NCBI RefSeq assembly: GCF_024808875.1
Contig: NZ_JANUCT010000020.1
Span: 1-50,705 of the forward strand
Length of the DNA stretch: 50,705 bases
DNA from: Methylohalomonas lacus
GTDB taxonomy: Bacteria > Pseudomonadota > Gammaproteobacteria > Methylohalomonadales > Methylohalomonadaceae
Direction: 5' to 3'
Position numbers and translations under genes: made by a program. The notes under the pieces were generated by a model. The model was not told the DNA's origin, did not search any database, and saw only the letters and a program-made list of their open reading frames with translations. Position 1 is the stretch's first letter. Each line of letters begins with the position of its first letter. Below, in pieces: positions 11,271 to 30,168 of the stretch.

Positions 11271-11294
11271 AAACAATCAGCACGATGATTGTTT
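11271..11294. repeat. Perfect 9-bp stem-loop
   Basis: AAACAATCA-GCACGA-TGATTGTTT is a perfect inverted repeat with a 6-base loop, in the gap between the CapK-like and GT2 genes. No T-run follows on the plus strand, so it does not look like a standard terminator. Confidence 0.6.
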
Positions 11295-11318
11295 CTTAGA
11301 TATCTGTAGTCAGTTTAT

Positions 11319-11340
11319 TTAAGGCAGTGATTTGCCTTAA
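11319..11340. repeat. Perfect 8-bp stem-loop
   Basis: TTAAGGCA-GTGATT-TGCCTTAA is a second perfect inverted repeat with a 6-base loop, 24 bp downstream of the one at 11271-11294. Neither is followed by a clean T-run. The pair could act in the 5' leader of the next gene. Confidence 0.6.
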
Positions 11341-11402
11341 GACGTTGTCATTAAATTAGAAAACTTTATTATTTTTATAAAATATTTTATTGATCTATAT
11401 AT

Positions 11403-12374: not shown

Positions 12375-12519
12375 AATTATACACTTACTGATGTTTTATA
12401 TAAGAATGAGAGTTAGTAACTTTGATCTATTTATTCAAAAAAAATCTTATTAAGAGTAGACACATATATTTGAAGATTATTTACGATTTATAAACTCTAT
12501 AAAAATATTATTATGAATC

Positions 12520-14241: not shown

Positions 14242-14463
14242 AATTTATACCTGCTTATACCATGCTCATAAAACTGAATATATTTTATGTTCACGACACA
14301 ATAGAACCTTATTTTATGATAGATACATATATTGAGCGTACTATTATAGATTGTCTAATATTTAAATAGGTTATTTGACTTATATCACACTATATAGAAA
14401 ATAAAATTCAACCAGAAGTGGAGCTCATGAGCTAGAAAGATAGGAAAATTGAAGTTGACAAAC

Positions 14464-15978
14464 CTACCACGACAGATATTTTCTTAACCATTTCAATACA
14501 ATATATCTTTCATTAGGCCCCATTGACAGATACCAGTAGCAGACAAAGTAAACTCCCGCTCCGATTGATGCACACACCAGTATTTCGGAATAGTTATTAA
14601 GACCCCATGTCATCCTTAACCAGAGAGAACAACTCAACATAAGTACGCTAGGTAACATTACCGGCAAAACAACCTTTTTTATGTAGGTCATTATAGAAAC
14701 ATGTAGATGCCGGCAAGAATAGATAAGATATATAGGCATAACGAAGAATACAGGTATAACAGAACCAAATGCGGCACCAATCACACCAATTTCAAAAACC
14801 AGCCAAACACTAAGGCCTAAGTTTATAATTGCCGCGACTGGTGCTACTTTTGCAAATATACCGTGCCATCCGATAGCCGTAAGATAACGGCTAACAAATG
14901 GATTTAGTTTCGGTATAAGAACATAAAGCATTAATAACAATATTATTCCATCCATAGATTCCCGACTAAATTCGCCCCGCATCCAGGTTTCAATGAAAGG
15001 ACCGCCAACCACTATTATAGCTATAGATGCCGGTATAAAAAAACCAACAAATAGTTTGCTTGAAATAAGGTATATCTGCTTTATTTTTTCCTGCTCTTGT
15101 TTGGCATTTAAGTCACTAAATAATGGCATAAACGCATGAGTCAGAGTCTGGGTAAAATCATAGATCATATTTATAAGGCTGGCAGGAACGCTATAAACAG
15201 GAACTACTGAAGGACCTAATATAGAACCTATAACAAGTCGATCTGATGATGTTTCAATCTGGAAAGAAGCTCCCTGGACAAAGGATTTTATGCTAAACGA
15301 TAGCATCTCCTTCAACCTAGATAGCGAGAATTTTTTAAAACTTGGCGCAATTCGACCTAAAGTCGGCCTTAACAGAATTACGACAAAGATGAAAAATTTC
15401 AACAATGTCATAACTGCTGCCAATGCAGTTAAAAGGATCAAACCGTTAGCCGGCGTTATATAAATATAACTTATTATCGCTATTGTAATGGATGTTATGA
15501 TATTAATGGTATTTTTTAAATAATAAGCCTGAAGACCTTCCAAGTAACTTTCAGTAACAAAAAGTGGAAATAAAAAAAGTATGTGCGCACCAACTAACAC
15601 CAAGAATAAAATATATTTAACCTTGTCTCCTTCATCAGGCGTTATCAAACCCGACCAAAACGCAGCACATAACCACAACAAAATTGCTAGAAAACATCCA
15701 ACCATGATCATAAATGTCAAGCTAGTTGTATAGGTGACGAGAAGAGACTCATTGTCATTTTTGGCATTATACATAGATGCAAATCGCCCTATTGCTGTAC
15801 GCATACCCAGATCCAGCATCCCCATATATCCAGTTATGGCAAGCAACATTTCCCTGAGACCATAATCATAATGACCAAGGTTAGAAACGTAAATTGGCGC
15901 CATAATAAATATTACAATCACACGGTTAACTGTCATTACAACATTCGAGCCAGTATTAATTGCTAATCTTTTAAACAT
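14464..15978 (-). CDS. Wzx-like polysaccharide flippase
   Basis: This integral membrane protein of 504 residues has about twelve to fourteen hydrophobic helices and belongs to the polysaccharide-synthesis/MATE-like (MOP) superfamily. The start FKRLAINTGSNVVMTVNRVI and the SSDRLVIGSILGPSVVPVYS segment in the middle are typical. It should flip the undecaprenyl-linked repeat unit across the inner membrane for polymerisation by the Wzy-like protein at 7184. It is on the minus strand with the ATP-grasp gene upstream (169-bp gap), so the two may share a transcript. The gene is A+T-rich like its neighbours. Confidence 0.85.
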   Translation of the reverse strand: MFKRLAINTGSNVVMTVNRVIVIFIMAPIYVSNLGHYDYGLREMLLAITGYMGMLDLGMRTAIGRFASMYNAKNDNESLLVTYTTSLTFMIMVGCFLAILLWLCAAFWSGLITPDEGDKVKYILFLVLVGAHILFLFPLFVTESYLEGLQAYYLKNTINIITSITIAIISYIYITPANGLILLTALAAVMTLLKFFIFVVILLRPTLGRIAPSFKKFSLSRLKEMLSFSIKSFVQGASFQIETSSDRLVIGSILGPSVVPVYSVPASLINMIYDFTQTLTHAFMPLFSDLNAKQEQEKIKQIYLISSKLFVGFFIPASIAIIVVGGPFIETWMRGEFSRESMDGIILLLMLYVLIPKLNPFVSRYLTAIGWHGIFAKVAPVAAIINLGLSVWLVFEIGVIGAAFGSVIPVFFVMPIYLIYSCRHLHVSIMTYIKKVVLPVMLPSVLMLSCSLWLRMTWGLNNYSEILVCASIGAGVYFVCYWYLSMGPNERYIVLKWLRKYLSW

Positions 15979-16147
15979 TAAAGACCCATATACTAAATTT
16001 ATGCAACAATGCGTAGTTTAGCTCGTTGCCAGTTGCTCTACGCTGTAATCAATACTTATAGCGCAGAAACTTAATTAAAATATCTGCTTTAATTCTATAA
16101 TTTTTATGTCACTAAATAATGATAAATGACAAATTTTCCTGAAATTA

Positions 16148-18565
16148 TTAAAAGCGAAAAAGTCTATTTATTTGTGATGTGATTTTTTTTGGTAACCATG
16201 GCCGAAACATGAAAGCCGTTTTTAGTAACGGCGATCTCACAAAATCAACTGTATTAAATATTACTTTTTCACCATTAAAGCGTGATTTATAGAAACTATT
16301 TTTTCCGGCGCCCGCAAGAAGATCATAGGAATGGATGAGGCTTGATTGGAATCCGTTCTCAATTGCAAATCCGAAATGTAATGTGCCCAATGAAATTTTT
16401 GAATGAAAAGATTCATAATATCCAGACTGCAAATTATAAATTCGTGATCCACATTGGATATCGTATAATACCGAAACAGTTTCACCATTAACTACCAATT
16501 CAGAAAGTTTGGCGACTTTATCAGACGAGAGTCGACTTAACAGTTTGCGGTGAAATTCTATCGCTAAATCGTCAAAACATACGCTTCCCCAACGAATCAA
16601 ATGAAATTTGTTCAAACGCTCAATAAATTTTAGACAGTCATCTTCAGAAGCATTTTCAATAAAACGAAATTCACCACCCAACTCATCGCAGAAAATATTC
16701 CGTCGATTAAATGCTTTCAGCCTTGTATTTCTACCCAGTCCATTAAGCCAGGTTTGGAAGGTATAGGCAGTATTTATGATCACGCCTAGGTCATCGCTAC
16801 GCACAATCTGACTAGCTTTAGTACAAACTGGAATCACCTGATCAAATTTCTTAAGAGTTGATGCACAGCAATCCGAGATTGTCAAAGCATCCCAATTTAG
16901 ATCCTTAATATATTCTATAATTGCAGTAGTTACAGAATGTTCTCTATCAACTATAGAAATCATGCCAATGTATTCTGTACGAATAGAAGGGCTAAGCTGC
17001 CGAGCATTGCCTATAAATTGCAATCTGGTTAGTGACAGACCAAGTTGGCTGTCTATTATATGCCGATATAGTGGTGCCAAACCAACAAGGTTATTATTTT
17101 TATCATACGCAGCTATAAGCATAAGCTCTAGTCCAAGCCGATGCCCCCATACTTGCCACCAACTATATTGCCATGCCCAACTCATAAATAAACAATCTGA
17201 ATCAGACGAAGTTAATAGTGCTGACCACTCAGTTTCCATATTAGCAAAATCATTTTCACTCAATCTCTGTATAAACAAATCGGCGCTAGCATCCAGTGCC
17301 ACTGGCTCCGTCATGCCGGATATATGATTTGGCTTAAACTTCCTTGCCATTTTTCCGCTTAAAGCTTTTAATGCATCCTTAAAAGTTAACCATGAGGGAG
17401 AAACATCATCAGAAGCCCAAATAGCCTTCGACTTGGAAAAATATAAATCCTTAATATAATCAATAAGATCAGCTTCGTTGGTTTTTCTCAGCATCAAACA
17501 ACTTCGCAAATCCCAGTCTTCGTTTATAAACTTTATGCCATTTTCAAAAGTGCCTTGGTAACTATATTGTTTATCTGTTAGATATTTATATCCGATATAT
17601 GGAAAATCAACCCCAGCTGATATAGCCAACTGGTTTCCAGAAACAGTGCGTGGGTTTACTTCCATGAGTTTAAATTCCCTGTCTCTAGGATCCAGTTTGA
17701 ATTCAACTCCAACAAATCCTTTGTAATTAAATTCTCTTAACAAGCGTATGCTTAATTCCCGTATTTCCGGGCAGTCAATAGTGATTTGTAACGCACCATC
17801 ACCATATAAAGGTGGGTTCTGACGAAGTTTTTGTTTTGTAATCCAGGCAATTTCTTCACTATCACTGGACCAGAAAGCAAGGTAGCCGTATAAACCTGTA
17901 TCACCACCGGGAATTATTTCCTGAACCATAAACTCTTTAGCTGCATCTCCCAAAGAGAACCATGACTCTATGAGTTCCTCAATAGTGTCCACCACCTTGA
18001 CTTTTTTTCCATTAAGAAATTTTCTACCCAGATGAGCTTTGCAGGGCTTTATAATGCAGGGGAAGGTAAATAGTCCCACATTATTTTTTATATATTCAAT
18101 ATTAGATGGATAAATGCAGTAAGGCACAGAGATGCCAATTTTTTGTGCTCTAGTGTACTGCTCCTTTTTATCGATCAATGCATGAATGGTATCTGGATCA
18201 GGTATGCAAAACCGACACGAATACTTAAGACGATAACCATAGTTAGCTAAAAATTCATTATGGCTATCGGAGGTTGCAAATATAACAGGCTTGCACCTGC
18301 TTTTCTTAGCTGCATTATCAAGAACTGCAAGACCTGTTTCTGATGAAAGATCGGTAATAGCTGCCTTGGCAAAGGATGCGTATTTTGAGGAAGCTCCTAT
18401 CATCGCAACGTCATCAATTACAATGCAAAACAGGTTTTTTCGGCCAAGACTACGCACAAAGCTAAGTGCATTAATAGAGCTTCCTAGCACCCAGATAACT
18501 GGTGACTTCGAATCACAATGTTTTTCAAGTTGTGACCGTAAATTAGAAATAATATCATTTTTCAT
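16148..18565 (-). CDS. ATP-grasp ligase fused to an acetyltransferase (FemAB/BioF2-like) domain
   Basis: This single 805-residue protein has two enzyme halves. Residues about 20-340 look like an ATP-grasp ligase: an N-terminal pre-ATP-grasp domain (VIWVLGSS), a lysine-containing CIIKPCKAH strand (170-178), VQEIIPGGDTGLYGY (214-228) and metal-binding MEVNPRTVSGNQ (301-312). Residues about 410-790 look like a GNAT/FemAB-type acyl- or aminoacyltransferase of the CelD/BioF2 kind, with FMSWAWQYSWWQVWG, LVGLAPLYRHI and a late SGYYESFHSKISLGTLHFGF segment. ATP-grasp enzymes join a carboxylate to an amine; FemAB/GNAT enzymes transfer an acyl or aminoacyl group. A role in decorating the glycan is inferred from position. 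No stop or frameshift separates the halves. Confidence 0.8.
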   Translation of the reverse strand: MKNDIISNLRSQLEKHCDSKSPVIWVLGSSINALSFVRSLGRKNLFCIVIDDVAMIGASSKYASFAKAAITDLSSETGLAVLDNAAKKSRCKPVIFATSDSHNEFLANYGYRLKYSCRFCIPDPDTIHALIDKKEQYTRAQKIGISVPYCIYPSNIEYIKNNVGLFTFPCIIKPCKAHLGRKFLNGKKVKVVDTIEELIESWFSLGDAAKEFMVQEIIPGGDTGLYGYLAFWSSDSEEIAWITKQKLRQNPPLYGDGALQITIDCPEIRELSIRLLREFNYKGFVGVEFKLDPRDREFKLMEVNPRTVSGNQLAISAGVDFPYIGYKYLTDKQYSYQGTFENGIKFINEDWDLRSCLMLRKTNEADLIDYIKDLYFSKSKAIWASDDVSPSWLTFKDALKALSGKMARKFKPNHISGMTEPVALDASADLFIQRLSENDFANMETEWSALLTSSDSDCLFMSWAWQYSWWQVWGHRLGLELMLIAAYDKNNNLVGLAPLYRHIIDSQLGLSLTRLQFIGNARQLSPSIRTEYIGMISIVDREHSVTTAIIEYIKDLNWDALTISDCCASTLKKFDQVIPVCTKASQIVRSDDLGVIINTAYTFQTWLNGLGRNTRLKAFNRRNIFCDELGGEFRFIENASEDDCLKFIERLNKFHLIRWGSVCFDDLAIEFHRKLLSRLSSDKVAKLSELVVNGETVSVLYDIQCGSRIYNLQSGYYESFHSKISLGTLHFGFAIENGFQSSLIHSYDLLAGAGKNSFYKSRFNGEKVIFNTVDFVRSPLLKTAFMFRPWLPKKITSQINRLFRF

Positions 18566-18783: not shown

Positions 18784-20730
18784 TTAGTTTTGTTGCCATG
18801 ACTCCAGCCATGTCTCGAACATGAGAATACCCCATAACTTGAATGATGCGTCCTCGGTTCGGCGGGTATGGCGGCGCCATTTCTCTTGTACCTGGTCGGC
18901 ATCAAAGTAGCCTTCATGCTTCAGGCGCGCTGGGTCGAGCAGGTCGTCAGCCCACCTCTGCAAGGGCCCGCGCAACCATTCGCGGACGGGAACGGCGAAA
19001 CCCTGTTTGGGGCGCTCCGTCAGTTCCTCGGGGACATATTTAGAGAGAATCCTGCGAAGCGGCCATTTGCCGTCCGCATGCAGTGTGTTCACACGATCGG
19101 GGATACGGGCCGCGAGTTCGATGATCTCCCGGCTCAGCAACGGGATGCGCGTTTCCAGGCTGTTTGCCATGGCAGCGCGATCGACCTTGGCCAGAATATC
19201 GTCCGGCAGATAGCTGAGCATGTCCAGGTACTGCAGGTTCTGCAGGATGGACCCGTTAACCAGCGCCGGCGCCGTATCGTTTAGAACGTAATCCGGTTCG
19301 CGGCCGCCGTGGACGATACCCGCCTCCCGCCAGTAGGAGATTTTGCGCTGATAGGCCTCCCGCAGTGAGGCATGCAGCCAGTCGTCCGCGCGGTCACGCA
19401 GTCTTTCTCCTGCGTGGTGATGACTGCGTTGGGTGAAAAGTCGCAAGGCGGAGCCGGCAACCGGGTCCAGCAGTGATTTGGGTATGCGCTTCAACAGGCG
19501 TGCGCCGGCCCGATGTAACGGCCGGGGGTACCTCTGCATGGTTTCCATGTGTCGCTGCAGGGAAAAATAACGGGAGTAACCACAAAACAGCTCGTCACCG
19601 CCATCTCCTGAGAGGGCCACTGTAACCTTTTCTCCGGCCAGTTTGGCAAGCAGGTAAGTCGGTATCTGTGAGGAGTCAGCAAACGGTTCATCGTAGATCT
19701 GCGGCAATTGCGGAACTACTTCGAGGGCCTGCTCGGGGCTGACGTACAACTCAGTGTGATCGGTTTTCAGATGTTCACTGACAGCTTTTGCCTGGCTGGC
19801 TTCATTGTAATCGCCCTCGCTAAAGCCGATGGTGAAGGTCTTTACGGGTGAGGCGTGGATTGACTGCATCAGGGCGACGACGGTCGAGGAGTCGATACCC
19901 CCGGAGAGGAAGGCGCCAACGGGCACGTCCGCGATCATCTGCCGCTTGATTGTGGCACGGAGCCGCGATTCTAGCGCCTCTGCCATCTCCTCGGGACTAC
20001 CCGTCAATGGGTCGGCAATTCCGTCTTCACAAACCTTCCGATATGACCAGTATGTCCGGATTTCGATATGGGCACTCCCGGCATCCAGGATCAGAAAGGT
20101 CCCCGGTGACAGCTTGTGGATATCCGTGAAGATGCTATGCGGGGCCGGGATATAATTGTGTCTCAACAACAGGGTCAACGCGTCCCGGTTGATTTCATTG
20201 CGCCAGGCGCGATGGCGGCGCAAGGCCTTGAGCTCCGAACCGAACAGGAAGGTGTTGCCTTGCCAGCCGTAGTAGAGCGGTTTTTCACCGATGCGGTCCC
20301 GCGCCAGGTAAAGTTTTTGAGTGTGCCTGTCCCACAGGGCAAAGGAGAACATGCCGTCAAATCGCTCCAGCGAGTCCGGGACACCCCAGTGTGTAAAAGC
20401 CGCCAGCATGACTTCGGTATCGGAGTGTCCCTGGAACGTCTCGCCCTTCGCCTGCAGCTCCATCTTCAGATCGAGGAAGTTGTAGATCTCCCCATTGAAA
20501 ACGATCACAAAACGCCCACAGCGGGAAAACATGGGCTGGTGTCCCAGCGGCGAAAGGTCCTGGATGGCCAGCCGCCTGTGTGCGAGGGCGATGCCACGCT
20601 GCGGGTCCGACCAGGCACCCTCATAGTCAGGGCCACGATGCCGTAGTGTCGAGGACATACGCTGTAGCTCATCCATGACCGTGGACTCGGGCTGGATCTT
20701 TCTGCTAAAAAAGCCGGTCAGTCCACACAT
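18784..20730 (-). CDS. XrtA-associated asparagine-synthase-like amidotransferase
   Basis: This class II glutamine amidotransferase of 648 residues is related to asparagine synthetase B. The nucleophile is Cys2 (MCGLTGFF), and the N-terminal half has RHRGPD and FNGEIYN glutaminase marks. The ATP-pyrophosphatase half carries the SGGIDSS P-loop at 276-282. In exosortase A clusters this family (amidotransferase 1) probably amidates a sugar carboxylate rather than aspartate. The frame is open 35 codons further, into XrtA, but the ATG at 20730 is right because Cys must follow Met. The XrtA stop lies 4 bp upstream, so they are co-transcribed. Confidence 0.9.
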   Translation of the reverse strand: MCGLTGFFSRKIQPESTVMDELQRMSSTLRHRGPDYEGAWSDPQRGIALAHRRLAIQDLSPLGHQPMFSRCGRFVIVFNGEIYNFLDLKMELQAKGETFQGHSDTEVMLAAFTHWGVPDSLERFDGMFSFALWDRHTQKLYLARDRIGEKPLYYGWQGNTFLFGSELKALRRHRAWRNEINRDALTLLLRHNYIPAPHSIFTDIHKLSPGTFLILDAGSAHIEIRTYWSYRKVCEDGIADPLTGSPEEMAEALESRLRATIKRQMIADVPVGAFLSGGIDSSTVVALMQSIHASPVKTFTIGFSEGDYNEASQAKAVSEHLKTDHTELYVSPEQALEVVPQLPQIYDEPFADSSQIPTYLLAKLAGEKVTVALSGDGGDELFCGYSRYFSLQRHMETMQRYPRPLHRAGARLLKRIPKSLLDPVAGSALRLFTQRSHHHAGERLRDRADDWLHASLREAYQRKISYWREAGIVHGGREPDYVLNDTAPALVNGSILQNLQYLDMLSYLPDDILAKVDRAAMANSLETRIPLLSREIIELAARIPDRVNTLHADGKWPLRRILSKYVPEELTERPKQGFAVPVREWLRGPLQRWADDLLDPARLKHEGYFDADQVQEKWRRHTRRTEDASFKLWGILMFETWLESWQQN

Positions 20731-20734
20731 GGAG

Positions 20735-22246
20735 TCACCGACCGCCGGTAAACACGGCAAGCCGTTCATAGGCCGGTCCGCAGTCCGCCTGACAGGCGGT
20801 CGACGCGGCGGTAAACAGCGCATAGGGGCGGCCATTCGCTACTGCCAGGAACTGGTAGAGTTTTGCGATCGAATAACTGGAAGTTGTAAATCCCCCTACG
20901 TCGAAACGGTAAACGACCCGGACTTCTTCCTGTGTATTCTTGTTGACTAACCTGAGTTGTTGGTAGCCGCCCAGTTCTCCCTTATCCTTTACCGCCCAGT
21001 CGGCACGGCCATAGATATTATTGATGTAGGGCAATATCTCCCCGCGCCCTTTACCCTTGAGGTAAAGAAACCGATAGACGGTCACGGCGCCCGCATCCTG
21101 TCCGTACTGCGTCACAGAGATATCTTCCGGAACGCTGATCTGTGGCTGCCATTCATAGGCAAGCGGGATATATTCGGTTTCTTCTGTCCGGCCACCTCCG
21201 AACGACGATGATACATCGCTTAATTTTACATCTGCCCTCCCCGCGTCCTCGTACCGGTCGAGCATGTACGGTGCAGCCGAGATGGACAGCCAGAGCACGG
21301 CGAAACCGATTATGACGCCGGCGAGTTCCATGGCCGGTCTTTTATACAAGCGCTGCCCGGGACTGTTATCCGCCGCCTGCGTATGGCCGCCGGTATCGCC
21401 AGGAGAACTATATCTGCTGCTTAAAATAAGCAACGGCAGTATGAATAGAAGGAAAACGACCCAGCCAAGCATTTCATGATCGTCGACCAAAGGGCTTTGC
21501 ATCTCCGAGAAGTAAGCGATCAGAATTATGATGTAGACCCGAACCCAGTTTGCAAGCAGTGACAGGAACACCGCTGCTGTTATTAGCAGCAACTGTCTCT
21601 TCAGCGTTATGCAATTCAGGTAGCTGCCGAGCACGCCGAGAAATGAGCCTATTATGAAATACCGAATACCCGAACAGCCAGAGACAATCATAATTTCGCC
21701 GGAAGGAATGAAGATGCTGTTGCCCGTTATATGGGCAGTGATGCCGCTAAGCTGAACCAGATACTGAACAACTACCGTAGTGAGTGCCAGTAAAGCGTTA
21801 TTAAGGTGATCCCAAAGGGGTATGGCGAAGTAAAGCAATCCCAGAGGTACAACAATCCTTTTAGCCTCTCCGGTACCGGCGACTAATGCAAACGACAGCA
21901 GAATAATAACAGGCAGCAGGAGATACTGTACCAGCTCAACTCCAATGACAGCTGCCACTTCCAGGAGCATAGAGAGCAACAGGAGTGGCAAGGCATAATA
22001 CCAGTTCGGAGAGATCGGGTCGTACCGCTTCACGTTAAGAGCCCGGAAGGTCAGGAAGAGACTAGTCGCAGCAACTAGAAGACCGTGCCCATAGGTTTCG
22101 TCAAATACCAGCCATAATGAGAACAAACCCGACAGGGCGTCCTGAAAGACAAAAGCGATAAATGCCAGGCAAAGCAAGAACAGGCCGAGTGATTTATACT
22201 GCGGGACATTAAAATTGACGACGGATTGCATCCTTCTATTATTCAT
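20735..22246 (-). CDS. xrtA: Exosortase A with C-terminal EpsI domain
   Basis: This 503-residue membrane protease/transpeptidase recognises PEP-CTERM signals. It has eight or so transmembrane helices. The catalytic residues are Cys191 in VSGCSGIRY, Arg236 in ANWVRVYII and His257 in DDHEMLGW, all at expected positions. Residues about 310-503 form a periplasmic EpsI-type domain (after a further helix, AGVIIGFAVLWLSISAAPYM) found fused or adjacent to exosortases and linked with exopolysaccharide export. It sits between the XrtA-type deacetylase and amidotransferase, the usual order. A second in-frame ATG 15 bp downstream is possible. Confidence 0.95.
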   Translation of the reverse strand: MNNRRMQSVVNFNVPQYKSLGLFLLCLAFIAFVFQDALSGLFSLWLVFDETYGHGLLVAATSLFLTFRALNVKRYDPISPNWYYALPLLLLSMLLEVAAVIGVELVQYLLLPVIILLSFALVAGTGEAKRIVVPLGLLYFAIPLWDHLNNALLALTTVVVQYLVQLSGITAHITGNSIFIPSGEIMIVSGCSGIRYFIIGSFLGVLGSYLNCITLKRQLLLITAAVFLSLLANWVRVYIIILIAYFSEMQSPLVDDHEMLGWVVFLLFILPLLILSSRYSSPGDTGGHTQAADNSPGQRLYKRPAMELAGVIIGFAVLWLSISAAPYMLDRYEDAGRADVKLSDVSSSFGGGRTEETEYIPLAYEWQPQISVPEDISVTQYGQDAGAVTVYRFLYLKGKGRGEILPYINNIYGRADWAVKDKGELGGYQQLRLVNKNTQEEVRVVYRFDVGGFTTSSYSIAKLYQFLAVANGRPYALFTAASTACQADCGPAYERLAVFTGGR

Positions 22247-22261: not shown

Positions 22262-23155
22262 TTAACCGGCGACCATTCTGGTCTGCTCGCTACCAGAAAG
22301 AGGGCTCGGCAGGCCCAGTTCGTCCATGAATATATCCTGTAGTGCTCCCCAATTGAACTCGGCAAGCAGCAGGGAAAGCTTGCTCTGCATACGATGCAGG
22401 TTCTTGTAATGCCTGAATCGTGTTTTCAGATTCAGCCCCTTGGGGCGCGGTTGGCCTGGATCCAGTTCCCAGGGATGAAAATAGAATATGCAGGGCTTGT
22501 TATCATTTCGGTTTATTCGGTTGATCATAGATCTGGAGATCATATATGGAAATAAACGGAAATAGCCGCCACCAGCGCAAGGCACCCTGTGGCCACGCCA
22601 TTGATACGTCGAAAGAGGGATCTCCAGCAAACTGCCACCGCCCGGCCGATAGGCAAAGCGGTAGCCACCAGGTATGCCATACAGATCGTGATGGATAGGA
22701 TAAACGCTGGAGCTGTATTTGTATCCGGCTGAATCCAGTTCTTTGTGCGCCCAGTGGTTCTCAGCGTTAATAGAAAAGCTGGCAGCCCGGTATCCGTGAA
22801 CAATATTGCCACTGATATCTTCAAGCAGATGCTTGGTTCGGATGATGTCGTTCCTAAACGCCTCGCGGTCTTGTCTATTGATCCTGACATGGGAATAACC
22901 GTGACTGGCAATTTCGTGACCGGCATTGGCAATCCGACGCACCATCTCGGTATGCCGCTCCGCGATCCAGCCCAGTGTGAAGAATGTGGCCTTTACACCA
23001 TGATCATCGAACATAGACAATATCAGGTCGATATTTTTCTCGATACGACAAGGCAGACTTGCCCATTCCTCTCTGGTGATATGATTCTCAAAGGCAGAGA
23101 CTTGAAAATAATCTTCGACATCCACCGTCATTGCATTTCTTATTTCACTCCGCAT
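22262..23155 (-). CDS. XrtA-associated polysaccharide deacetylase (DUF3473 type)
   Basis: This is a roughly 297-residue NodB-fold deacetylase of the exosortase A-associated family. The start region MTVDVEDYFQVSAFE carries the metal-binding Asp, and HEIASHGYSHVRINRQ holds the HxxSH ligands. CIFYFHPWELDPGQPRPKG is the family's conserved C-terminal (DUF3473) motif. The reading frame opens further upstream to 23221, but that overlaps the ATPase gene. The ATG at 23155, overlapping the ATPase end by 11 bp, is the best start. No signal peptide is visible. Confidence 0.9.
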   Translation of the reverse strand: MRSEIRNAMTVDVEDYFQVSAFENHITREEWASLPCRIEKNIDLILSMFDDHGVKATFFTLGWIAERHTEMVRRIANAGHEIASHGYSHVRINRQDREAFRNDIIRTKHLLEDISGNIVHGYRAASFSINAENHWAHKELDSAGYKYSSSVYPIHHDLYGIPGGYRFAYRPGGGSLLEIPLSTYQWRGHRVPCAGGGYFRLFPYMISRSMINRINRNDNKPCIFYFHPWELDPGQPRPKGLNLKTRFRHYKNLHRMQSKLSLLLAEFNWGALQDIFMDELGLPSPLSGSEQTRMVAG

Positions 23156-24023
23156 CGTAGGAGAATTCCGCGGTGATCTGGTTTTCGGACGAACCGTCTG
23201 AATTTTCGTTCCAGAATTCATTTTTTACATCATCCAGAATTGCCTCGAAAGACTGATTATCAATTCGATGAAGTTCCTCCACATGGCCATAAAGAAGTAC
23301 GCGTCCGCATAGCAGATTTATCTTTCGTGGAATTCCACCCGTAAATTGATGTATACCCTCGATCACGTCATTGTCGATAATCGGATCATTCTGCCAGCCC
23401 GATAGCTTAAGACGGTGTATTATATATTCTTTGGTTTCCTGCAGATCCAAAGGCTCAAGATGATGAGTAGCAATTATTCTCTGGCGCAATTGTTCCAGAT
23501 CCGCCGCTTGTAAAATTCTTTTAAATTGCTTCTGACCGAGAAGAAAACACTGTACCAATGGTTTCCCTTGCCATTGCAGGTTGGAAAGCATACGCAGCTC
23601 TTCTAAAGAGTCCCAGGGTAGATTCTGGGCCTCATCGACAATCAACAGGATACGCTTGCCAGCATGCGCGCAACTCTTGAAGTATTGATACATATTTTTA
23701 AGTAAATAGGCCTTATTAATATCTTTATAGCGGAGCCCGAATTCAGCTGATGTCAGGCGCAGCAAATCCTCTGCCTGCAGCTTGGAATTTACAATATTAG
23801 CTATTGTATAATTCTGATTTTCTATTTTTTTCAGCAAATAACTGACCAGTGTAGTCTTTCCGGCGCCAACATCTCCTGTAATGACAATAAATCCCTCTTC
23901 TTGCTGCAGACCGTATAATAGATACGATAAAGCTCTTTTGTGGGTTCTGCTGTTAAAAAAGAAACCAGGGTCTGCCGTTAATAAAAAAGGATTTCGCTTG
24001 AGTTTATAAAAAGATTCGTACAT
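23145..24023 (-). CDS. XrtA-associated ATPase (ExeA-like AAA)
   Basis: This 292-residue P-loop ATPase is of the family always found near exosortase A and related to ExeA of type II secretion. It has a Walker A GDVGAGKTT at residues 50-58, a Walker B LLIVDEAQ at 126-133, and QLRQRIIATHHLEPLDLQET as sensor/arginine-finger region. It is predicted cytoplasmic and to power or regulate an export step. It lies 6 bp after the beta-barrel gene. Confidence 0.92.
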   Translation of the reverse strand: MYESFYKLKRNPFLLTADPGFFFNSRTHKRALSYLLYGLQQEEGFIVITGDVGAGKTTLVSYLLKKIENQNYTIANIVNSKLQAEDLLRLTSAEFGLRYKDINKAYLLKNMYQYFKSCAHAGKRILLIVDEAQNLPWDSLEELRMLSNLQWQGKPLVQCFLLGQKQFKRILQAADLEQLRQRIIATHHLEPLDLQETKEYIIHRLKLSGWQNDPIIDNDVIEGIHQFTGGIPRKINLLCGRVLLYGHVEELHRIDNQSFEAILDDVKNEFWNENSDGSSENQITAEFSYDAE

Positions 24024-24029
24024 AAAGTT

Positions 24030-25481
24030 CTAGAATTTTTTGTTAATGCTGAGGAAAAGACGATTCTCGGTATACGATTCACGTGAAATATTTGAGCTGG
24101 CGTCAATGTAACGATAGCCTACTCTGGCATCGAGACCAGGATTGATCTTTCTGACTAAACTGTAATCAATCACACTGAAATCCTGTTCTCTGCCTCTTTG
24201 GAAAAGATTTCTACCACTTTCGTTTGTGCTCAGCGACAGGCTTAGCCGAGAATCCAGTTTTCTGTTGACATCCCACAACCAGGATAGCTCGGCACCCTTA
24301 GATTCCTCACTCCGGTTGCTGAGTTGAAATTCACGGTCCTCCATGAATATCGACAAATCCAGAGTGTTTTTTCTATGAGTGTACCTGAATGCGAAGTCGA
24401 GTCGTTCACGTATGAAAACTTCCGGAGATTGCACCGGAACATTGACGTTAAGCACTGCCGGATCGCCAGTATTCGGATTAGTTACTGGATTGCCAAAATT
24501 GTCGACCAGGGAAAATACCTGCTGCTCAAAAAGAACAGTTCTGGTGACATCCGGACGTCGTTGAAAGGTGAGTTGCGTGCGGGTTTTCCTGGTACGGTGG
24601 GAGGCGTCGACAACTATATCAGTGCCGAAAAAACGTTCGCCGAATGTTGCTTCCAGTGAAGTTCTGCGTGAAGGCCTCCAGACACCGCCCAGTCGCCACA
24701 ACGGACCGTCGATGCTTTCACCAGAATTCGCAAACTCATTATCATCGTATCCAGCAACTGCCTTCAATCCAAACTTTTGTGTGATCAGATACACTCCCTC
24801 GGCAGTTACATTCCGAAATCGTGTTGACCCTGCTCCATCATTGTCTATTTCTTCATTCTTGAAGTGCACACCCCAAAGCAGCCGATTAAATTCAGTACCA
24901 CTGGAAAGATCAAAGGAGACTATATTACTGACACTGTCGAATGTTCGACTGGATTCGACAGCATTCCTTTCATAGCGTAATTCGGCATCCATAAAGTTGC
25001 CTATTCGTTCCTGCCAATAAGGACTTACACTGTAAGTCAAGACACTAGCACGATCGTCAGTAAGTGAAGTATTATCCAGCGTGATACCGCCTGTATTTGT
25101 TATATTTTGCTGACTGCTGGATGCTGACGCATCTAGAAATAATCTGTCCTCTAGCAATTCACCAGTACCAGTCGCATCCAGAAGGTTGATGAATTGGTTT
25201 TCCTCGGAATGATTTTTGTAAAAGTTTCCCTGAAGTTGGTAATTTAAATCAAGCTTCAGCCGCCTACTTTCCCGTGCTATGGATATACCAGGTGTTACAG
25301 TTGTTATAAAATCACTACTCTCGAGACCAGACGGCGCAAGTCCGACATTGTCAGTGAAAATCTCGCTAACGCTGAGTGACGGTGTGAATGTCCATGGATC
25401 AGCATAAGCATTGGAGACGATTGCCAGCATGACTGGCGCAGACAACCATTGCAAAACAGCTGGTAAAGTAGCGCGCCACAT
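24030..25481 (-). CDS. XrtA-associated outer-membrane beta-barrel protein
   Basis: This 483-residue secreted protein has a signal peptide (ending near SNAYA) and many short alternating hydrophobic strands ending in Phe (RLFLSINKKF), the mark of an outer-membrane barrel. It matches the PEP-CTERM-associated TIGR03016-type family (WTFTPSLSVSEIFTDNVGLA start). It probably forms part of the export pore or a lipid-linked secretion path. Its ATG overlaps the kinase stop (TGATG), so translation is coupled. Confidence 0.9.
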   Translation of the reverse strand: MWRATLPAVLQWLSAPVMLAIVSNAYADPWTFTPSLSVSEIFTDNVGLAPSGLESSDFITTVTPGISIARESRRLKLDLNYQLQGNFYKNHSEENQFINLLDATGTGELLEDRLFLDASASSSQQNITNTGGITLDNTSLTDDRASVLTYSVSPYWQERIGNFMDAELRYERNAVESSRTFDSVSNIVSFDLSSGTEFNRLLWGVHFKNEEIDNDGAGSTRFRNVTAEGVYLITQKFGLKAVAGYDDNEFANSGESIDGPLWRLGGVWRPSRRTSLEATFGERFFGTDIVVDASHRTRKTRTQLTFQRRPDVTRTVLFEQQVFSLVDNFGNPVTNPNTGDPAVLNVNVPVQSPEVFIRERLDFAFRYTHRKNTLDLSIFMEDREFQLSNRSEESKGAELSWLWDVNRKLDSRLSLSLSTNESGRNLFQRGREQDFSVIDYSLVRKINPGLDARVGYRYIDASSNISRESYTENRLFLSINKKF

Positions 25482-26473
25482 CAGACTGAACCATCCATTG
25501 CTTTCATCTTTGTGGCCAGAGGGAAATTTACGTGACTATAATAACCGTACTCTGAAACGAGACGTTTGTTACTCTTGTTCAGCAAAATACCAATATACTG
25601 AACATCGGCAATAGCCTGCAGCGCGTCCGTGACCAATTGCTGGGATGTTTTTTCGGCCTCAATAACGAATACTACTTGACCGACAAGTCTGGCCAGGATT
25701 TGAGTAGATGAATCTTGCAATACCGGTGAAGCATCAAATATAACTATACGATCGTGATAACGGGCAGATAGTTCTGACAATAATCTTTGCATCTTTTCTG
25801 TAGCCCATAATTCATGAGTGGCATCAGAGTAGGTACCAGCTGGAAGTATCGTCAAGTTAGGAACATTTGTCTTCAACATATAATCTGACAAGTCGGTATT
25901 ATCTGCCATTAGATAATCAGTCAGCCCAGGTTCTTCCTCAAGGCCGAGATAATTGCTGGTCGTATGCTTGACTATATCCGCGTCAATAAACAAGGCGGTA
26001 CGATCAAACTCTCTGGCTATACTTAGGGCGATATTCAATGAAGAGAATGATTTACCTTCTTTTGAAACTGCGCTGGTTACCATAACAAGATTGCGGTTTT
26101 CCAGATGCGCACCTTCAGCCTCAAAGGCATTAATAAGAATAGGCCTTTTTATACGCCGATATTGCTCAGCCAGGGTTATATTGACAGCTTCTGGTACTAA
26201 ATAACCAGACTTCTTAAGCATCTCTAGGTCGAGAGCTATTTCTCTGGATTTTTTTGCTTCTTCATTGGCAAGCATTGCCGATTTCTGATGCTCTTGTTCT
26301 TCTGTTTGTATACTTGATATTTCAGACCTCTTACCCTCCCAGTGCATTGGTTCATATACAACAGAATCCTGTTCAGGATCAAACTTGTCCTCACTGGGAC
26401 GTGCTGCCTTATCAGGCGTGTCTTTATCCAGCTTCTCTAATAATTTTTCTATTATACTCATGATATTATTCAA
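25481..26473 (-). CDS. XrtA-associated tyrosine autokinase (CpsD/EpsG-like)
   Basis: This 330-residue bacterial tyrosine kinase works with the chain-length protein upstream to control polymer length and export. Walker A is TSAVSKEGKSFSSLN near residue 132, a form in which GxG is replaced by VSK. Walker A-prime is TALFIDADIVKH, and there is a late FDASPVLQD (Walker B). The C-terminus has the Tyr cluster SEYGYY that is autophosphorylated in BY-kinases. It overlaps the chain-length gene's end by 8 bp. Confidence 0.9.
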   Translation of the reverse strand: MNNIMSIIEKLLEKLDKDTPDKAARPSEDKFDPEQDSVVYEPMHWEGKRSEISSIQTEEQEHQKSAMLANEEAKKSREIALDLEMLKKSGYLVPEAVNITLAEQYRRIKRPILINAFEAEGAHLENRNLVMVTSAVSKEGKSFSSLNIALSIAREFDRTALFIDADIVKHTTSNYLGLEEEPGLTDYLMADNTDLSDYMLKTNVPNLTILPAGTYSDATHELWATEKMQRLLSELSARYHDRIVIFDASPVLQDSSTQILARLVGQVVFVIEAEKTSQQLVTDALQAIADVQYIGILLNKSNKRLVSEYGYYSHVNFPLATKMKAMDGSV

Positions 26474-28067
26474 TTAGCCGATTTATGAACGTTGTAACGC
26501 CGGGGTCGAGACCGTTATGAACTAGCAGGCCGCCATAAGAAATAAATAATATAACCAATGACATGTTAAACATAATGAATCTCTGCCGCCGTTTAGAAAC
26601 TGCCTCATCATTCCAGAACATAGATACGACACCTAAAACAGGTAATTCAATGTTTTCTACCAACTGACGCTTGCTATAAATGGTCGGTCGAATCAACTCA
26701 TAGACAATCGCCAGACCAATACCTGCTACGATAGCAGCCAGTAATACCAGCGTACTAAGAAGTATACGGTTTGGACTCACAGGGCTAACCGGCACCATTG
26801 GCTGCTCTAGTACTCTGAATTGCATTTCCTCGCCAGTTTGACCAGCCTCAGAGCTGAGTTGCAACGACTGCTGTCGCATTACAAGCTGTTCATAAAGTTC
26901 TTTGGTCACCTCATAATCCCGGTTCAAACTAACCAATTGTGCCTCTACCTCGGGCAGTGTTGACAATTGATTATTCATTTCTGTACGACGTCTACGATAC
27001 TCGTCCAATCTGGCACGTAGCGCCGAGGTTTCTGCCTGCGTCTCACCCAAAAGGATGTTAAGCTCCTGGTACAGTGTAGAATTCTGTAGGCCTGGACTAA
27101 CCTGATTGGCTTGTGGCTCCTCAGCCCCCTCCTCCTGAACCTGTTTTTGTTCTCTCATCTGCTCCAGCACACGCCGCGTGCTGATTATGTCGGGATGCTG
27201 TTCGGTGTATTTAAGCAACAGTTCATCCAGCCTGGTTTCCATGCTCTCGATTCTGCTCTCCAACGGTGTCTGCGCTATTTCTGGAGAAGAAGGACTATTT
27301 GATGATCTATCTCGTAGTGAAGCGATCTGGGCCTGAAGGGTACGTGTCCGATTTTCGGCTTCGTTTAGCGACAATTCCGTTTCCTGTATTCTGGTCTCAA
27401 GTGCATTAATTCTGGAATAGATACCATTACCCTCCTCCATCATAATGCCGGCATTTTCCTGCTTAAATTTCTTGAGTCTATCTTCTGCTTCATTTTGTTT
27501 ACGCGCATATATAGCTACTTGATTATCAACGAACTCCTGTGCTTGCTGGTTATCTTTACGGCCTGTACCAAGAATGGTTTCAATGAAAATATTCAATAAA
27601 ACTTCTACTACATCTTTTGCCATCTGAGGGTTCGTATGCAAGTAACTGATGCTATATATATTACTGGAGTCATTTCGTGTTATGGATTCCGAAGAAATAC
27701 GTATGTCCCTGGCAAGCTGGCTCAATAGCTTTTCTATCTGCTCTGGATCAGATTCATTGATCGCAAGATTTAGATCCGTCTCTCTTACAACTTTTTCCAA
27801 GTTGGGACGTACAAGTAATGTATGTTGCATAACACGTGCAGCATGTTCACGCATACTGCTGTCAACAGCAATTCCCGAAAGCAGTGATTTAAGGACTGTT
27901 TCAGTGTCAATATAAATTCTTGTTTCCGACTGAAATTTATCAGGTATAGACTGAACCACAGTCCATCCAACTAGGCAGATCAAAATAGTGCTGGCCAGCA
28001 TAATCCAGCAGTTATGAAACAAAACCCATTTATAATGATTAATTTGTTCGAATATTTCATTCATCAC
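26466..28067 (-). CDS. XrtA-associated chain-length determinant (Wzz/Wzc N-terminal type)
   Basis: The protein has 533 residues with an N-terminal transmembrane helix (about 18-37), a large periplasmic alpha-helical/coiled-coil domain and a second helix near residues 430-455 preceded by the Pro-rich PMVPVSPVSPNR. A third hydrophobic stretch lies near the end. This is the polysaccharide co-polymerase layout of Wzz/Wzc and the TIGR03007 exosortase A family. It controls chain length with the downstream autokinase, which supplies the missing cytoplasmic kinase part. Confidence 0.92.
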   Translation of the reverse strand: MMNEIFEQINHYKWVLFHNCWIMLASTILICLVGWTVVQSIPDKFQSETRIYIDTETVLKSLLSGIAVDSSMREHAARVMQHTLLVRPNLEKVVRETDLNLAINESDPEQIEKLLSQLARDIRISSESITRNDSSNIYSISYLHTNPQMAKDVVEVLLNIFIETILGTGRKDNQQAQEFVDNQVAIYARKQNEAEDRLKKFKQENAGIMMEEGNGIYSRINALETRIQETELSLNEAENRTRTLQAQIASLRDRSSNSPSSPEIAQTPLESRIESMETRLDELLLKYTEQHPDIISTRRVLEQMREQKQVQEEGAEEPQANQVSPGLQNSTLYQELNILLGETQAETSALRARLDEYRRRRTEMNNQLSTLPEVEAQLVSLNRDYEVTKELYEQLVMRQQSLQLSSEAGQTGEEMQFRVLEQPMVPVSPVSPNRILLSTLVLLAAIVAGIGLAIVYELIRPTIYSKRQLVENIELPVLGVVSMFWNDEAVSKRRQRFIMFNMSLVILFISYGGLLVHNGLDPGVTTFINRLIE

Positions 28068-28102
28068 GGTCGGGCTCGTTTAAAAAGTAATTTATACATT
28101 TG

Positions 28103-28738
28103 TTAAAAATAGGATTCCGGAATCACCAGGATATCTCCAGGTGCAACCTCTGTATTAGCACTTAGATCACCCTGTTTAATCAGGTCATCGATCTTTACAT
28201 TAAAATTATTTTCCGAGCCATTTATATTGCGCACTATAATTGCCCTGTTACCCGCTGCGAATTCAGTCAGACCACCGACTTCAATCATCACATCCAGAAG
28301 GGTCATATCGTTACGATAGGGAATTGCCCTGGGCTCCGCTGCTTCTCCGACTACTCTTATTTGCTGAGAATGCGCACCTACGATGCCTACTACTGTCACA
28401 GTGACTAGTGGATCTCTAATTACTTCAACCAGCGCCATCTCGATATCCTTGGCAAGCTGTATTGGTGTCTTGCCACTGGCCATGATGTCGCCAACAAGCG
28501 GGGACGAAATGCGTCCATCTGGCATCACGGGAATATCAGAGACCGAAATGTCCTCATTGCGCCAGACGAAGATATCCAGTCTGTCACCTGGAGCAATGGT
28601 ATAGCTGTAATCTTTAACCGCAGGTGCTGGATCACCCGTTTCAACCAAGCTTTGCGCACAACCTGATAGAGTCATTACAGTTAGTAACAGAAAAAGAAAT
28701 GTATTTTTAACGGTAGTCTCTATAGCATATATAAACAT
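28103..28738 (-). CDS. XrtA-associated polysaccharide export lipoprotein (Wza-like)
   Basis: This 211-residue outer-membrane lipoprotein has a lipobox LSGC with Cys27, followed by a Poly_export domain (YTIAPGDRLDIFVWRNEDIS) and a SLBB domain (IRVVGEAAEPRAIPYRNDMT). It is the short exosortase-type export protein rather than full-length Wza. It begins the minus-strand export block after prsR (74-bp gap). A GAGAGAGAG stretch before the ATG is the likely ribosome-binding site. Confidence 0.92.
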   Translation of the reverse strand: MFIYAIETTVKNTFLFLLLTVMTLSGCAQSLVETGDPAPAVKDYSYTIAPGDRLDIFVWRNEDISVSDIPVMPDGRISSPLVGDIMASGKTPIQLAKDIEMALVEVIRDPLVTVTVVGIVGAHSQQIRVVGEAAEPRAIPYRNDMTLLDVMIEVGGLTEFAAGNRAIIVRNINGSENNFNVKIDDLIKQGDLSANTEVAPGDILVIPESYF

Positions 28739-28812
28739 GTCGCTCTCTCTCTAAGATAAAATTTATGTTCCATGTCTAGCCCCATATATATTTTGTTTGT
28801 TGAGGTGAATAC

Positions 28813-30168
28813 TCAATTTTTAATACCATGTTTTTCAAGCAAATCGTATAATGTTGGTCTGCTGACGTTCAGGAGTTTAGCAGCCCTGGACACCTTGAAG
28901 TTGCTTATATCCATGGCCTTTACCAAAGCTTGACGTTCGGCATCACTCCTTATTGCCCGAAGCTCGGGCATATCGGGCTTGCTGTCAGGAAGCTCCAGAT
29001 CGATATTTCTAATCTGGCCGTCCTCAGACATTATTATCGCTCTTTTAATCTTATTTTCGAGTTCTCTAATATTGCCTGGCCAGGTATATTCTTCAATTGC
29101 AGCAATTGCGCTTTTATCCAGACGACATGTCTTGCCTATTTCCCGGCAGTAGACTTCCAGGAAATGTTTGGCCAGTACTATTGAATCGCCACTGCGCTCA
29201 TGCAGAGAAGGTATGTGAATGGTAATTTCACTAATGCGGTAGTACAGATCTTCGCGGAACTGACCGATTTCAATTTTATCGGACAAATCCTGATGTGTTG
29301 CACAGATAATGCGCACATCGACCTGTATTTCCTCTCTACCACCTACACGCACTATGAGCCTTTCCTGTAGAAAACGGAGGATCTTTGCCTGTAAATGTAA
29401 TGGCAGATCGCCGATTTCATCCAGGAACAGTGTTCCACCGGCGGCATACTCGATTTTCCCTGGAGTCCGCTTCTGAGCACCGGTAAAGGCACCCTTCTCG
29501 TAACCGAATAATTCACTTTCCAGAAGATTGTCCGGTATGGCCGCACAATTGATGGCGACAAAAAGTTCATTCCTGCGCGGGCTCAAGTTGTGCAGGGCAC
29601 GAGCCAACAGTTCCTTTCCAGTACCAGTAGCACCCAGAAGCAGTGTAGACACTTCGGTCGGTCCGACCTTCTCAACCATTCGACACACCTCAGCCATCTG
29701 CGGGCTTGAGGCAACCAGGCCTGAGAGCTCACCATGTCGGTTCGATTCGGCCAGTCGTCTGTTTTCTTGTTCCAGTTCACTCAGTTTGTATGCCCTGTCT
29801 ACAATTAGAGATAGAACATCCGGTTCCATGGGCTTCTGATAAAAATCGTAGGCGCCCAGCTCGACAGCCTTTAATGCATATTCTCGCTCGCCGTTGCCGG
29901 TGACAACGATAACCTTGGTCTCAGGGGCACAGGAAAGGATTTCGCTCAATACCTCCATGCCTACTGTGGCATTGGCCGAATCAGGGGGTAGTCCCAGATC
30001 CAGCGTAATCACTGGCGGTCTGTGTCGCCGGACTTGATCCAAAGCTGTCTCACGATCACCCGCCTCGAATACAACGTAATCAGGGAAGCACCAGTACATC
30101 TGTTTCAGAAGGCCGGGATCATCTTCAACTATTAGTATGGACCGATTTTTTTCAGGAGGGAAAGTCAT
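28813..30168 (-). CDS. prsR: PrsR, sigma-54-dependent response regulator of the PEP-CTERM regulon
   Basis: This 451-residue NtrC-family activator has a receiver domain (phosphoacceptor Asp57 in TLDLGLPPD), an AAA+ domain with Walker A GATGTGKE (179-186), GAFTGA at 226-231 (the sigma-54-contacting loop) and Walker B GTLFLDEIGD (245-254). A C-terminal Fis-type helix-turn-helix (NFKVSRAAKLLNVSRPTLYD) ends it. The PEP-CTERM-box response regulator family matches. The partner kinase is PrsK, whose stop overlaps this start by 4 bp. The sigma-54 promoter at 997-1012 is the evident target type. Confidence 0.95.
   Translation of the reverse strand: MTFPPEKNRSILIVEDDPGLLKQMYWCFPDYVVFEAGDRETALDQVRRHRPPVITLDLGLPPDSANATVGMEVLSEILSCAPETKVIVVTGNGEREYALKAVELGAYDFYQKPMEPDVLSLIVDRAYKLSELEQENRRLAESNRHGELSGLVASSPQMAEVCRMVEKVGPTEVSTLLLGATGTGKELLARALHNLSPRRNELFVAINCAAIPDNLLESELFGYEKGAFTGAQKRTPGKIEYAAGGTLFLDEIGDLPLHLQAKILRFLQERLIVRVGGREEIQVDVRIICATHQDLSDKIEIGQFREDLYYRISEITIHIPSLHERSGDSIVLAKHFLEVYCREIGKTCRLDKSAIAAIEEYTWPGNIRELENKIKRAIIMSEDGQIRNIDLELPDSKPDMPELRAIRSDAERQALVKAMDISNFKVSRAAKLLNVSRPTLYDLLEKHGIKN

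What the first reader, a model, noticed from the sequence alone, without database searches (positions are those of the whole stretch)
16148..18565. ATP-grasp ligase fused to a FemAB/GNAT-like transferase in an exopolysaccharide locus
One 805-residue frame joins an ATP-grasp-like half and an acyl/aminoacyl transferase-like half. A ligase that makes an amide and a transferase that adds a group, in one chain beside Wzx, suggests a machine that decorates the glycan or a precursor. The usual XrtA-cluster FemAB-like gene is not seen beside the exosortase, so this fusion may replace its function.
Basis: partly seen in the sequence, partly recalled or inferred. Interest (0 to 1): 0.65.

Follow-up and report, generated by a model that had tools for sequence, protein, structure and literature searches.

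The report
Ligase-transferase fusion in exosortase locus
A gene in a bacterial sugar-coat and protein-sorting cluster really does join an ATP-using amide-forming enzyme to a transferase shaped like the FemX cell-wall enzymes, and related clusters carry the transferase with a similar enzyme in the same spot, which suggests it builds an amino-acid-bearing sugar.

Summary
16148-18565(-) is one uninterrupted 805-codon frame. Residues ~18-400 fold as an ATP-grasp ligase with its ATP/Mg residues kept (best match 2pn1, Z 28). Residues ~430-790 fold as a FemX-type tandem-GNAT transferase (6snr, Z 20). It lies in an XrtA/PEP-CTERM locus, between the AsnB-like amidotransferase and Wzx. The usual XrtA FemAB (TIGR03019) is absent from the genome.

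No second ATP-grasp::Fem fusion turned up in about 1,300 (overlapping) genome look-ups. Relatives of the Fem half recur in XrtA loci ordered Wzx-AsnB-X-GT-Fem-XrtA. X is an ATP-grasp or a ~350-aa GNAT, never both (9 versus 17 of 29 loci; 3 have neither). The GNAT is itself fused to Fem in two other genomes, a separate fusion event. In one well-sampled family TIGR03019 occurs in 0 of 34 genomes with a close Fem relative and in 81 of the other 117.

Best reading: a bifunctional enzyme adding amide-linked (amino)acyl groups to an amino-uronamide sugar of the XrtA glycan, standing in for TIGR03019. The nearest biochemistry is the Porphyromonas Wbp/Vim linking sugar. Substrates, donor and any link to exosortase are inferred. 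New architecture, known parts.

The parts
16148..18565 (-). ATP-grasp::Fem fusion gene, 805 aa
17321..18565 (-). N half (residues 1-415): ATP-grasp ligase; kept residues K133, K173, E216, R248, E288, D292, E302, N304, R306
17279..17338 (-). probable flexible linker, about residues 410-429; residues 411-418 have pLDDT under 50 in both half models
16151..17320 (-). C half (residues 416-805): FemX-fold tandem-GNAT transferase (PF13480); invariant R615, H655, Y701, G752, K760 among 24 relatives
18784..20835 (-). AsnB-like amidotransferase, best NCBIfam match TIGR03108 (XrtA system; 574.8 bits, below its cut-off 816.9)
20735..22246 (-). exosortase (XrtA type) with EpsI-like C-terminal part
22262..23221 (-). 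XrtA-system polysaccharide deacetylase TIGR03006 (432.9 bits, cut-off 276.2)
14464..15978 (-). Wzx-type flippase
23145..32270 (-). XrtA core: ATPase, TIGR03016, tyrosine kinase, chain-length protein, export protein, PrsR, PrsK
38586..39905 (-). nucleotide-sugar 6-dehydrogenase (TIGR03026; best TviB-like), likely source of an N-acetyl-amino uronic acid

Best explanation
The gene makes a bifunctional cytoplasmic enzyme that puts amide-linked (amino)acyl groups on a sugar of the XrtA exopolysaccharide unit before Wzx flips it. Proposed steps: the locus makes an N-acetyl-amino uronic acid (TviB-like dehydrogenase); AsnB turns the carboxyl into an amide; the CE4 deacetylase or another enzyme frees an amine; the Fem half transfers an aminoacyl or acyl group to that amine, the job TIGR03019 is thought to do in other XrtA loci; the ATP-grasp half makes a further amide by activating a carboxylate as an acyl phosphate, most likely joining a second amino acid or an amine to the same sugar. 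Shown here: both folds, intact ATP site, genomic setting, recurrent ATP-grasp/Fem neighbourhood, absence of TIGR03019. Inferred: every substrate, the donor, the order of steps and that the two halves act on one molecule.
For: Folds and residues. Setting. Gene order Wzx-AsnB-(ATP-grasp or GNAT)-GT-Fem-XrtA in relatives. Of 29 loci with a close Fem relative (window included), 9 have an ATP-grasp and 17 the slot GNAT on the same strand within 2.4 kb or fused, none has both, 3 neither. The slot GNAT is fused to Fem in L002 and L115, a clade apart from the window's Fem. In the ATP-grasp half's own clade, L043 and L116 have a Fem gene on the same strand within about 1.3 kb. TIGR03019 absent; 0 of 34 versus 81 of 117. 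Biochemical model: P. gingivalis VimA, WbpS and VimE act in making 2-N-seryl-3-N-acetylglucuronamide, and VimA matches TIGR03019 (PMC7468200, passages and section 20). An ATP-grasp domain in a two-enzyme chain (Cj1438) makes amides on capsule glucuronate (PMC11800379, passages).
Against: No enzyme activity is known to me for either half's close relatives. The ATP-grasp half's closest relative (L114, 41%) sits in an XrtA locus on the strand opposite AsnB with no Fem gene within the 18.9 kb held. Of 17 loci fetched because of an ATP-grasp hit (several short, L051 without a recognised ATP-grasp), only L043 has a Fem gene within 5 kb, so ATP-grasps of this broad family usually act without Fem. The ATP-grasps in the AsnB-Fem slot of family f185 belong to other lineages than the fused one. 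The C half shows no convincing sequence-profile kinship with TIGR03019 (hhalign probability 3.3, against a 2-sequence profile), so replacement rests on fold, setting and exclusion. I saw no WbpB/WbpD/WbpE genes in the window ORFs that I scanned and did not search the genome for them.
Confidence: 0.5

Rival explanations
1. The ATP-grasp half amidates the C6 carboxylate of a uronic acid with an amine, like the C-terminal domain of Campylobacter Cj1438, while the Fem half acylates an unrelated amine. The two are fused for convenience of expression, not because they share a substrate.
For: Cj1438 is a two-enzyme chain whose ATP-grasp domain makes amides on capsule glucuronate (PMC11800379). The locus has a nucleotide-sugar 6-dehydrogenase, which would make uronates.
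Against: The AsnB next door is the expected enzyme for the uronate carboxyl. Two unrelated slot enzymes (ATP-grasp, GNAT) have each been fused to Fem, which favours a shared substrate.
Confidence: 0.25
2. The Fem half uses acyl-CoA rather than aminoacyl-tRNA and simply N-acylates an amino sugar; no amino acid is involved in its step.
For: Tandem GNATs with acyl-CoA donors also match the model well (2wpw, Z 16.1; 5kf1, glucosamine N-acetyltransferase, Z 15.4). The alternative slot enzyme is itself a GNAT.
Against: The best matches are the aminoacyl transferases FemX and FemA and streptothricin aminoacyl-tRNA-dependent synthases (Z 18.7-20.4). PF13480 proteins use several donors (recalled).
Confidence: 0.35
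3. The Fem half does not replace TIGR03019. The exclusion in family f185 only reflects two inherited types of XrtA locus that make different polysaccharides.
For: The 34 genomes are mostly one genus (28 of 34), so they are not independent. Weaker relatives of the Fem half do co-occur with TIGR03019: 22 of 41 genomes, and directly next to it in L070.
Against: 0 of 34 against 81 of 117 is a sharp split, and in 14 of 22 f185 loci the close Fem relative is the gene directly beside the exosortase.
Confidence: 0.35
4. The single reading frame is a sequencing or assembly error, or a chance fusion without functional meaning.
For: The fusion was seen in one genome only; it lies in an A+T-rich island (33-39% G+C) against 43-59% around it.
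Against: The frame is open for 805 codons; Wzx and AsnB on both sides have relatives in the same loci, in the same neighbourhood, as the Fem half.
Confidence: 0.07

Closest known systems
VimA with WbpS and VimE (Wbp/Vim linking-sugar pathway, Porphyromonas gingivalis; PMC7468200)
   Same: N-acyltransferase-type protein acting with an AsnB-type amidotransferase and a CE4-type deacetylase beside a surface-protein sorting system; VimA matches TIGR03019 in that paper.
   Different: No ATP-grasp half is reported for VimA in the passages read; direct homology of VimA and this C half was not tested; no complete Wbp set was seen in the window.
TIGR03019, FemAB family XrtA/PEP-CTERM-associated protein
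   Same: Same locus type, and a Fem-type transferase by name.
   Different: The C half is not matched by TIGR03019 and profile comparison gives probability 3.3.
FemX / FemA (peptidoglycan bridge aminoacyl transferases)
   Same: Best solved folds for the C half: 6snr Z 20.4, rmsd 4.2, 312 aligned; 1lrz Z 20.1.
   Different: 11-16% identity; lies in a polysaccharide locus; substrate unknown.
2pn1, PRK12767-type carbamoyl-phosphate-synthase-like ATP-grasp proteins; PylC and L-amino acid ligases
   Same: Best solved fold for the N half: 2pn1 Z 28.2, rmsd 2.5, 289 aligned; PylC 4ffr Z 24.7; L-amino acid ligase 3vot Z 24.3.
   Different: No family cut-off of NCBIfam PRK12767 is reached (48 of 271 bits at best).
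Cj1438 of Campylobacter jejuni capsule synthesis
   Same: Two-enzyme chain with an ATP-grasp amide-forming part in a polysaccharide locus (PMC11800379).
   Different: Partner is a glycosyltransferase, not a Fem transferase; TupA-like ATP-grasp.

Membership tests
ATP-grasp superfamily | ATP-grasp fold | tested here: met
   Model pLDDT 90.0; 2pn1 Z 28.2, PurK, PylC, biotin carboxylase
ATP-grasp superfamily | ATP/Mg residues kept (two Lys, a Glu in the hinge strand, Glu-x-Asn-x-Arg near the end) | tested here: met
   K133 and K173 in 30 of 30, E216 in 26 of 30, E288 in 26, E302 in 28, N304 in 29, R306 in 30; which residues bind ATP is recalled from biotin carboxylase
ATP-grasp superfamily | ATP-dependent carboxylate-amine ligation | not testable with these tools
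   needs an assay
PF15632 ATPgrasp_Ter | score over Pfam gathering cut-off | tested here: met
   35.7 bits, cut-off 29.1
PRK12767 carbamoyl phosphate synthase-like (NCBIfam) | score over the equivalog cut-off | tested here: not met
   48 of 271 bits at best
PF13480 Acetyltransf_6 / Fem-type transferases | score over Pfam gathering cut-off | tested here: met
   44.7 bits, cut-off 22
PF13480 Acetyltransf_6 / Fem-type transferases | tandem-GNAT FemX fold | tested here: met
   Model pLDDT 91.1; FemX 6snr Z 20.4, FemA 1lrz Z 20.1
FemABX aminoacyl transferases | aminoacyl-tRNA-dependent transfer | not testable with these tools
   donor unknown; K760 invariant in 24 of 24; its match to the FemX catalytic Lys is recalled, not superposed
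TIGR03019 (XrtA FemAB) | match to the model | tested here: not met
   no match at E<=0.01 for this ORF nor in the genome
XrtA/PEP-CTERM EPS locus | core families over their cut-offs (TIGR03006, 03007, 03013, 03015, 03016, 03018, 03027, 02915, 02916, 02917) | tested here: met
XrtA/PEP-CTERM EPS locus | exosortase and PEP-CTERM substrates | tested here: met
   TIGR02602 124.4 bits, cut-off 105.55 (but TIGR03109 XrtA 189.7, cut-off 208, not reached); 3 PF07589 matches over cut-off in the genome, one in the window
Wbp/Vim linking-sugar pathway | WbpA/B/D/E plus VimA, VimE, WbpS homologues | tested here: inconclusive
   dehydrogenase, deacetylase and AsnB-type present; WbpB/D/E not seen in the window ORFs scanned and not searched in the genome; VimA and VimE sequences not compared

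The most novel reading that the evidence does not exclude
The fused enzyme builds a peptidyl- or aminoacyl-amino-uronamide sugar that is the acceptor to which the exosortase joins PEP-CTERM proteins. The slot enzyme (ATP-grasp or GNAT) and Fem together set the chemical identity of that acceptor, so the fusion marks the two-step pathway to the unknown exosortase nucleophile in this locus type.
Probability: 0.2. Interest if true: 0.9.

Novelty: new variant of a known kind. Interest (0 to 1): 0.58.

Why it matters
In 2020 the compound joined to PEP-CTERM proteins by exosortase was still called unidentified, and an amino-acid-modified sugar was put forward as a speculation (PMC7468200). This locus type offers a compact test. 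One gene holds two amide-forming activities by fold, it lies with AsnB and the exosortase, and in relatives the same pair of steps is encoded by near-neighbour genes with two interchangeable first enzymes. Deleting or assaying one gene would show whether the glycan, and perhaps the protein anchor, carries an amino acid. It also gives a fusion-based argument that the ATP-grasp or GNAT step and the Fem step are coupled, and it points to a second Fem family that appears to stand in for TIGR03019.

Tried and rejected
Joint alignment of both kinds of relatives with the full protein failed: half-length relatives of the N half were laid over the C half. I aligned and folded the halves apart, so the arrangement of the two domains to each other was not predicted.

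A pattern scan of genome contigs gave one relative only (L002). Plasmids (87 records) gave matches but no place covering 80% of the query. A PDB sequence search with the C-half profile found nothing at E<=1 and one chance match at E 2.5; only fold comparison showed FemX.

Considered and set aside as fusions: L043 (699 aa) and L050 (672 aa) have N-terminal extensions without a Pfam match at E<=0.01, so I treat them as probable start-codon overcalls (not tested further). L054 (HAD::ATP-grasp) and L053 (ATP-grasp::LMWPc) are other ATP-grasp fusions outside this theme.

My first thought, that the N half is simply the slot ATP-grasp of family f185 fused in place, is not supported: those ATP-grasps are other lineages.

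Paper searches. The three-term search ATP-grasp + FemAB + exopolysaccharide found 0 papers. PEP-CTERM + FemAB found one, a gene table. Exosortase + ATP-grasp found one, where both terms occur only in its reference list. Also opened, passages only: PMC9012009, PMC2824669, PMC1569441. Subscription journals are mostly not held.

Limits of the counts: the genome draws overlap; at most two candidates per genome were scored, so weaker second genes were missed; related genomes are not independent.

Full report
Observation. The window holds one minus-strand frame, 16148-18565, of 805 aa. Only the terminal stop occurs in it, and base shuffles of the same stretch never reached more than 154 open codons in one frame in 500 trials. 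Pfam puts ATPgrasp_Ter at residues 257-343 and CPSase_L_D2 at 267-313 in the first half and PF13480 at 627-760 in the second, all over their cut-offs.

Folds. Alignments of 30 ATP-grasp sequences (A2) and 24 Fem sequences (A3), each with the window's half first, gave confident models (pLDDT 90.0 and 91.1). The N half matches the ATP-grasp protein 2pn1 (Z 28.2, rmsd 2.5, 289 aligned), PurK, PylC and L-amino acid ligase. The C half matches FemX (6snr, Z 20.4, rmsd 4.2, 312 aligned), FemA (Z 20.1) and aminoacyl-tRNA-dependent streptothricin synthases (Z 18.7-19.1). By column counts K133 and K173 are kept in 30 of 30 sequences, E216 in 26, E288 in 26, D292 in 27, E302 in 28, N304 in 29 and R306 in 30. 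By analogy with biotin carboxylase (recalled) most of these are ATP and Mg ligands. In the C half R615, H655, Y701, G752 and K760 are invariant in 24 of 24. Residues 411-418 are poorly modelled in both half models and probably belong to a linker.

Setting. XrtA core families are present over their NCBIfam cut-offs (TIGR03006, 03007, 03013, 03015, 03016, 03018, 03027, 02915, 02916, 02917), with an exosortase over the general TIGR02602 cut-off but under the TIGR03109 one. The gene order on the minus strand is deacetylase, exosortase, AsnB-like, fusion, Wzx. AsnB ends 218 bases before the fusion starts, and 169 bases separate the fusion from Wzx. The fusion lies in an A+T-rich stretch: 33-39% G+C between about 8 and 18 kb, against 43-59% in the other 2-kb steps of the window. 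This suggests a separately acquired, glycan-specific cassette. A nucleotide-sugar 6-dehydrogenase, best matched by the TviB model, lies at 38586-39905. The genome has three PEP-CTERM domains over the PF07589 cut-off, one in the window at 346-417.

Is the fusion found elsewhere? Searches with the whole protein covered 369 genomes of the class (56 with a match at E<=1e-5), 398 of the phylum (23 at 1e-10), 151 of the family of G525 (104 at 1e-10) and 390 of its order (17 at 1e-40). The draws overlap, and the window's own genome is among the hits. No second ATP-grasp::Fem frame was listed. Two other Fem fusions were found: L002 (763 aa) and L115 (765 aa), where the front part is a GNAT.

The slot pattern. 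In 22 loci of family f185 (L068, L069, L092-L111) the usual order is Wzx, AsnB, slot gene, one or two GT2, Fem, XrtA. XrtA is directly beside Fem (100 bases or less) in 14 of the 22, 2.0-3.5 kb away in 6 and not seen in the stretch held in 2. Over all 29 loci with a close Fem relative (blastp E<=1e-60, window included) the same-strand neighbour within 2.4 kb, or the fused partner, is an ATP-grasp in 9 and the slot GNAT in 17, never both; 3 (L039, L040, L118) have neither. L104, L111 and L068 also have an ATP-grasp 5.4-7.0 kb away beyond Wzx, of another lineage. The GNAT of the L002 fusion is a homologue of the free slot GNATs (31% over 342 columns with L094, E 5e-45; 29% with L104). Thus each of the two alternative slot enzymes has been joined to Fem in some lineage. 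The Fem tree puts L002 and L115 in their own clade (100/100), with the window in another set with f185 (100/95), nearest to two ATP-grasp-slot loci but with weak support (90/62). So I read the two fusions as separate events.

Limits of that argument. The ATP-grasp half groups with L114 (100/100, 41% identity). L114 is an XrtA locus in which the ATP-grasp gene is on the strand opposite AsnB and no Fem gene lies in the 18.9 kb held. The slot ATP-grasps of f185 fall in two other places of the tree, though starred branches alone do not exclude a single origin for those eight. L043 and L116, which join the window and L114 at 81/86, do have a Fem gene on the same strand, about 0.9-1.3 kb away. Among 17 loci fetched because of an ATP-grasp hit, only L043 has a Fem within 5 kb. 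The ATP-grasp family at large is therefore not tied to Fem; the tie appears in loci with the close Fem family.

Replacement of TIGR03019. The fused protein is not matched by TIGR03019 and the genome lacks that family. In the 151 f185 genomes, TIGR03019 (E<=1e-30) occurs in 0 of the 34 with a close Fem relative (E<=7.1e-78) and in 81 of the other 117 (Fisher p 1.5e-14). The genomes are related, 28 of the 34 being one genus, so p is only descriptive. Against the idea: 22 of 41 genomes with a weaker relative do have TIGR03019, and 4 of the 30 handles tested, all with weaker relatives, have it. Replacement is therefore supported for the close family only.

Mechanism. In P. gingivalis a linking sugar, 2-N-seryl-3-N-acetylglucuronamide, is made with WbpS (AsnB type), VimE (putative deacetylase) and VimA, which is proposed to transfer the serine and matches TIGR03019. 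The authors speculated that XrtA systems make a similar amino-acid-modified sugar as the exosortase acceptor (PMC7468200, passages and section 20). An ATP-grasp domain in the multidomain Cj1438 makes amides on capsule glucuronate (PMC11800379, passages). On these models I propose that the Fem half acylates or aminoacylates an amine of an amino-uronamide and that the ATP-grasp half adds a further amide on the same unit. Donor, acceptor and order are inferred.

Verdict. The architecture appears rare; its parts and neighbours are known kinds. It is a new variant of a known kind with a clear route to a test of what exosortase glycans carry.

Noticed in passing
window 8000-18500: A+T-rich island (33-39% G+C) within an otherwise 43-59% G+C window, holding GT4, a PaaK/CapK-like AMP-ligase (9810-11156), GT2, the 573-aa protein, Wzx and the fusion.
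   Followed up: partly
window 12520-14241 (-): 573-aa protein with a signal-peptide-like start and no Pfam or NCBIfam match, next to Wzx; a weak relative (26%) in L109.
   Followed up: no
L002 8777-11068; L115 8116-10413: GNAT::Fem fusions directly after AsnB, mirroring the window's ATP-grasp::Fem fusion.
   Followed up: yes
genome G000 contig C4, 119199-121138: Three further PF13480 stretches close together, outside the window.
   Followed up: no
window 331-930 (-): PEP-CTERM protein at the edge of the window, weakly like flocculation protein PepA; only three PEP-CTERM domains were found in the genome.
   Followed up: partly
window 41449-44306 (-): Three neighbouring Crp/cyclic-nucleotide-binding-like proteins that resemble each other in their starts; only the third was scanned.
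   Followed up: no
L054 402-2177; L053 11088-12821: Other ATP-grasp fusions: HAD::ATP-grasp and ATP-grasp::LMW phosphatase.
   Followed up: no
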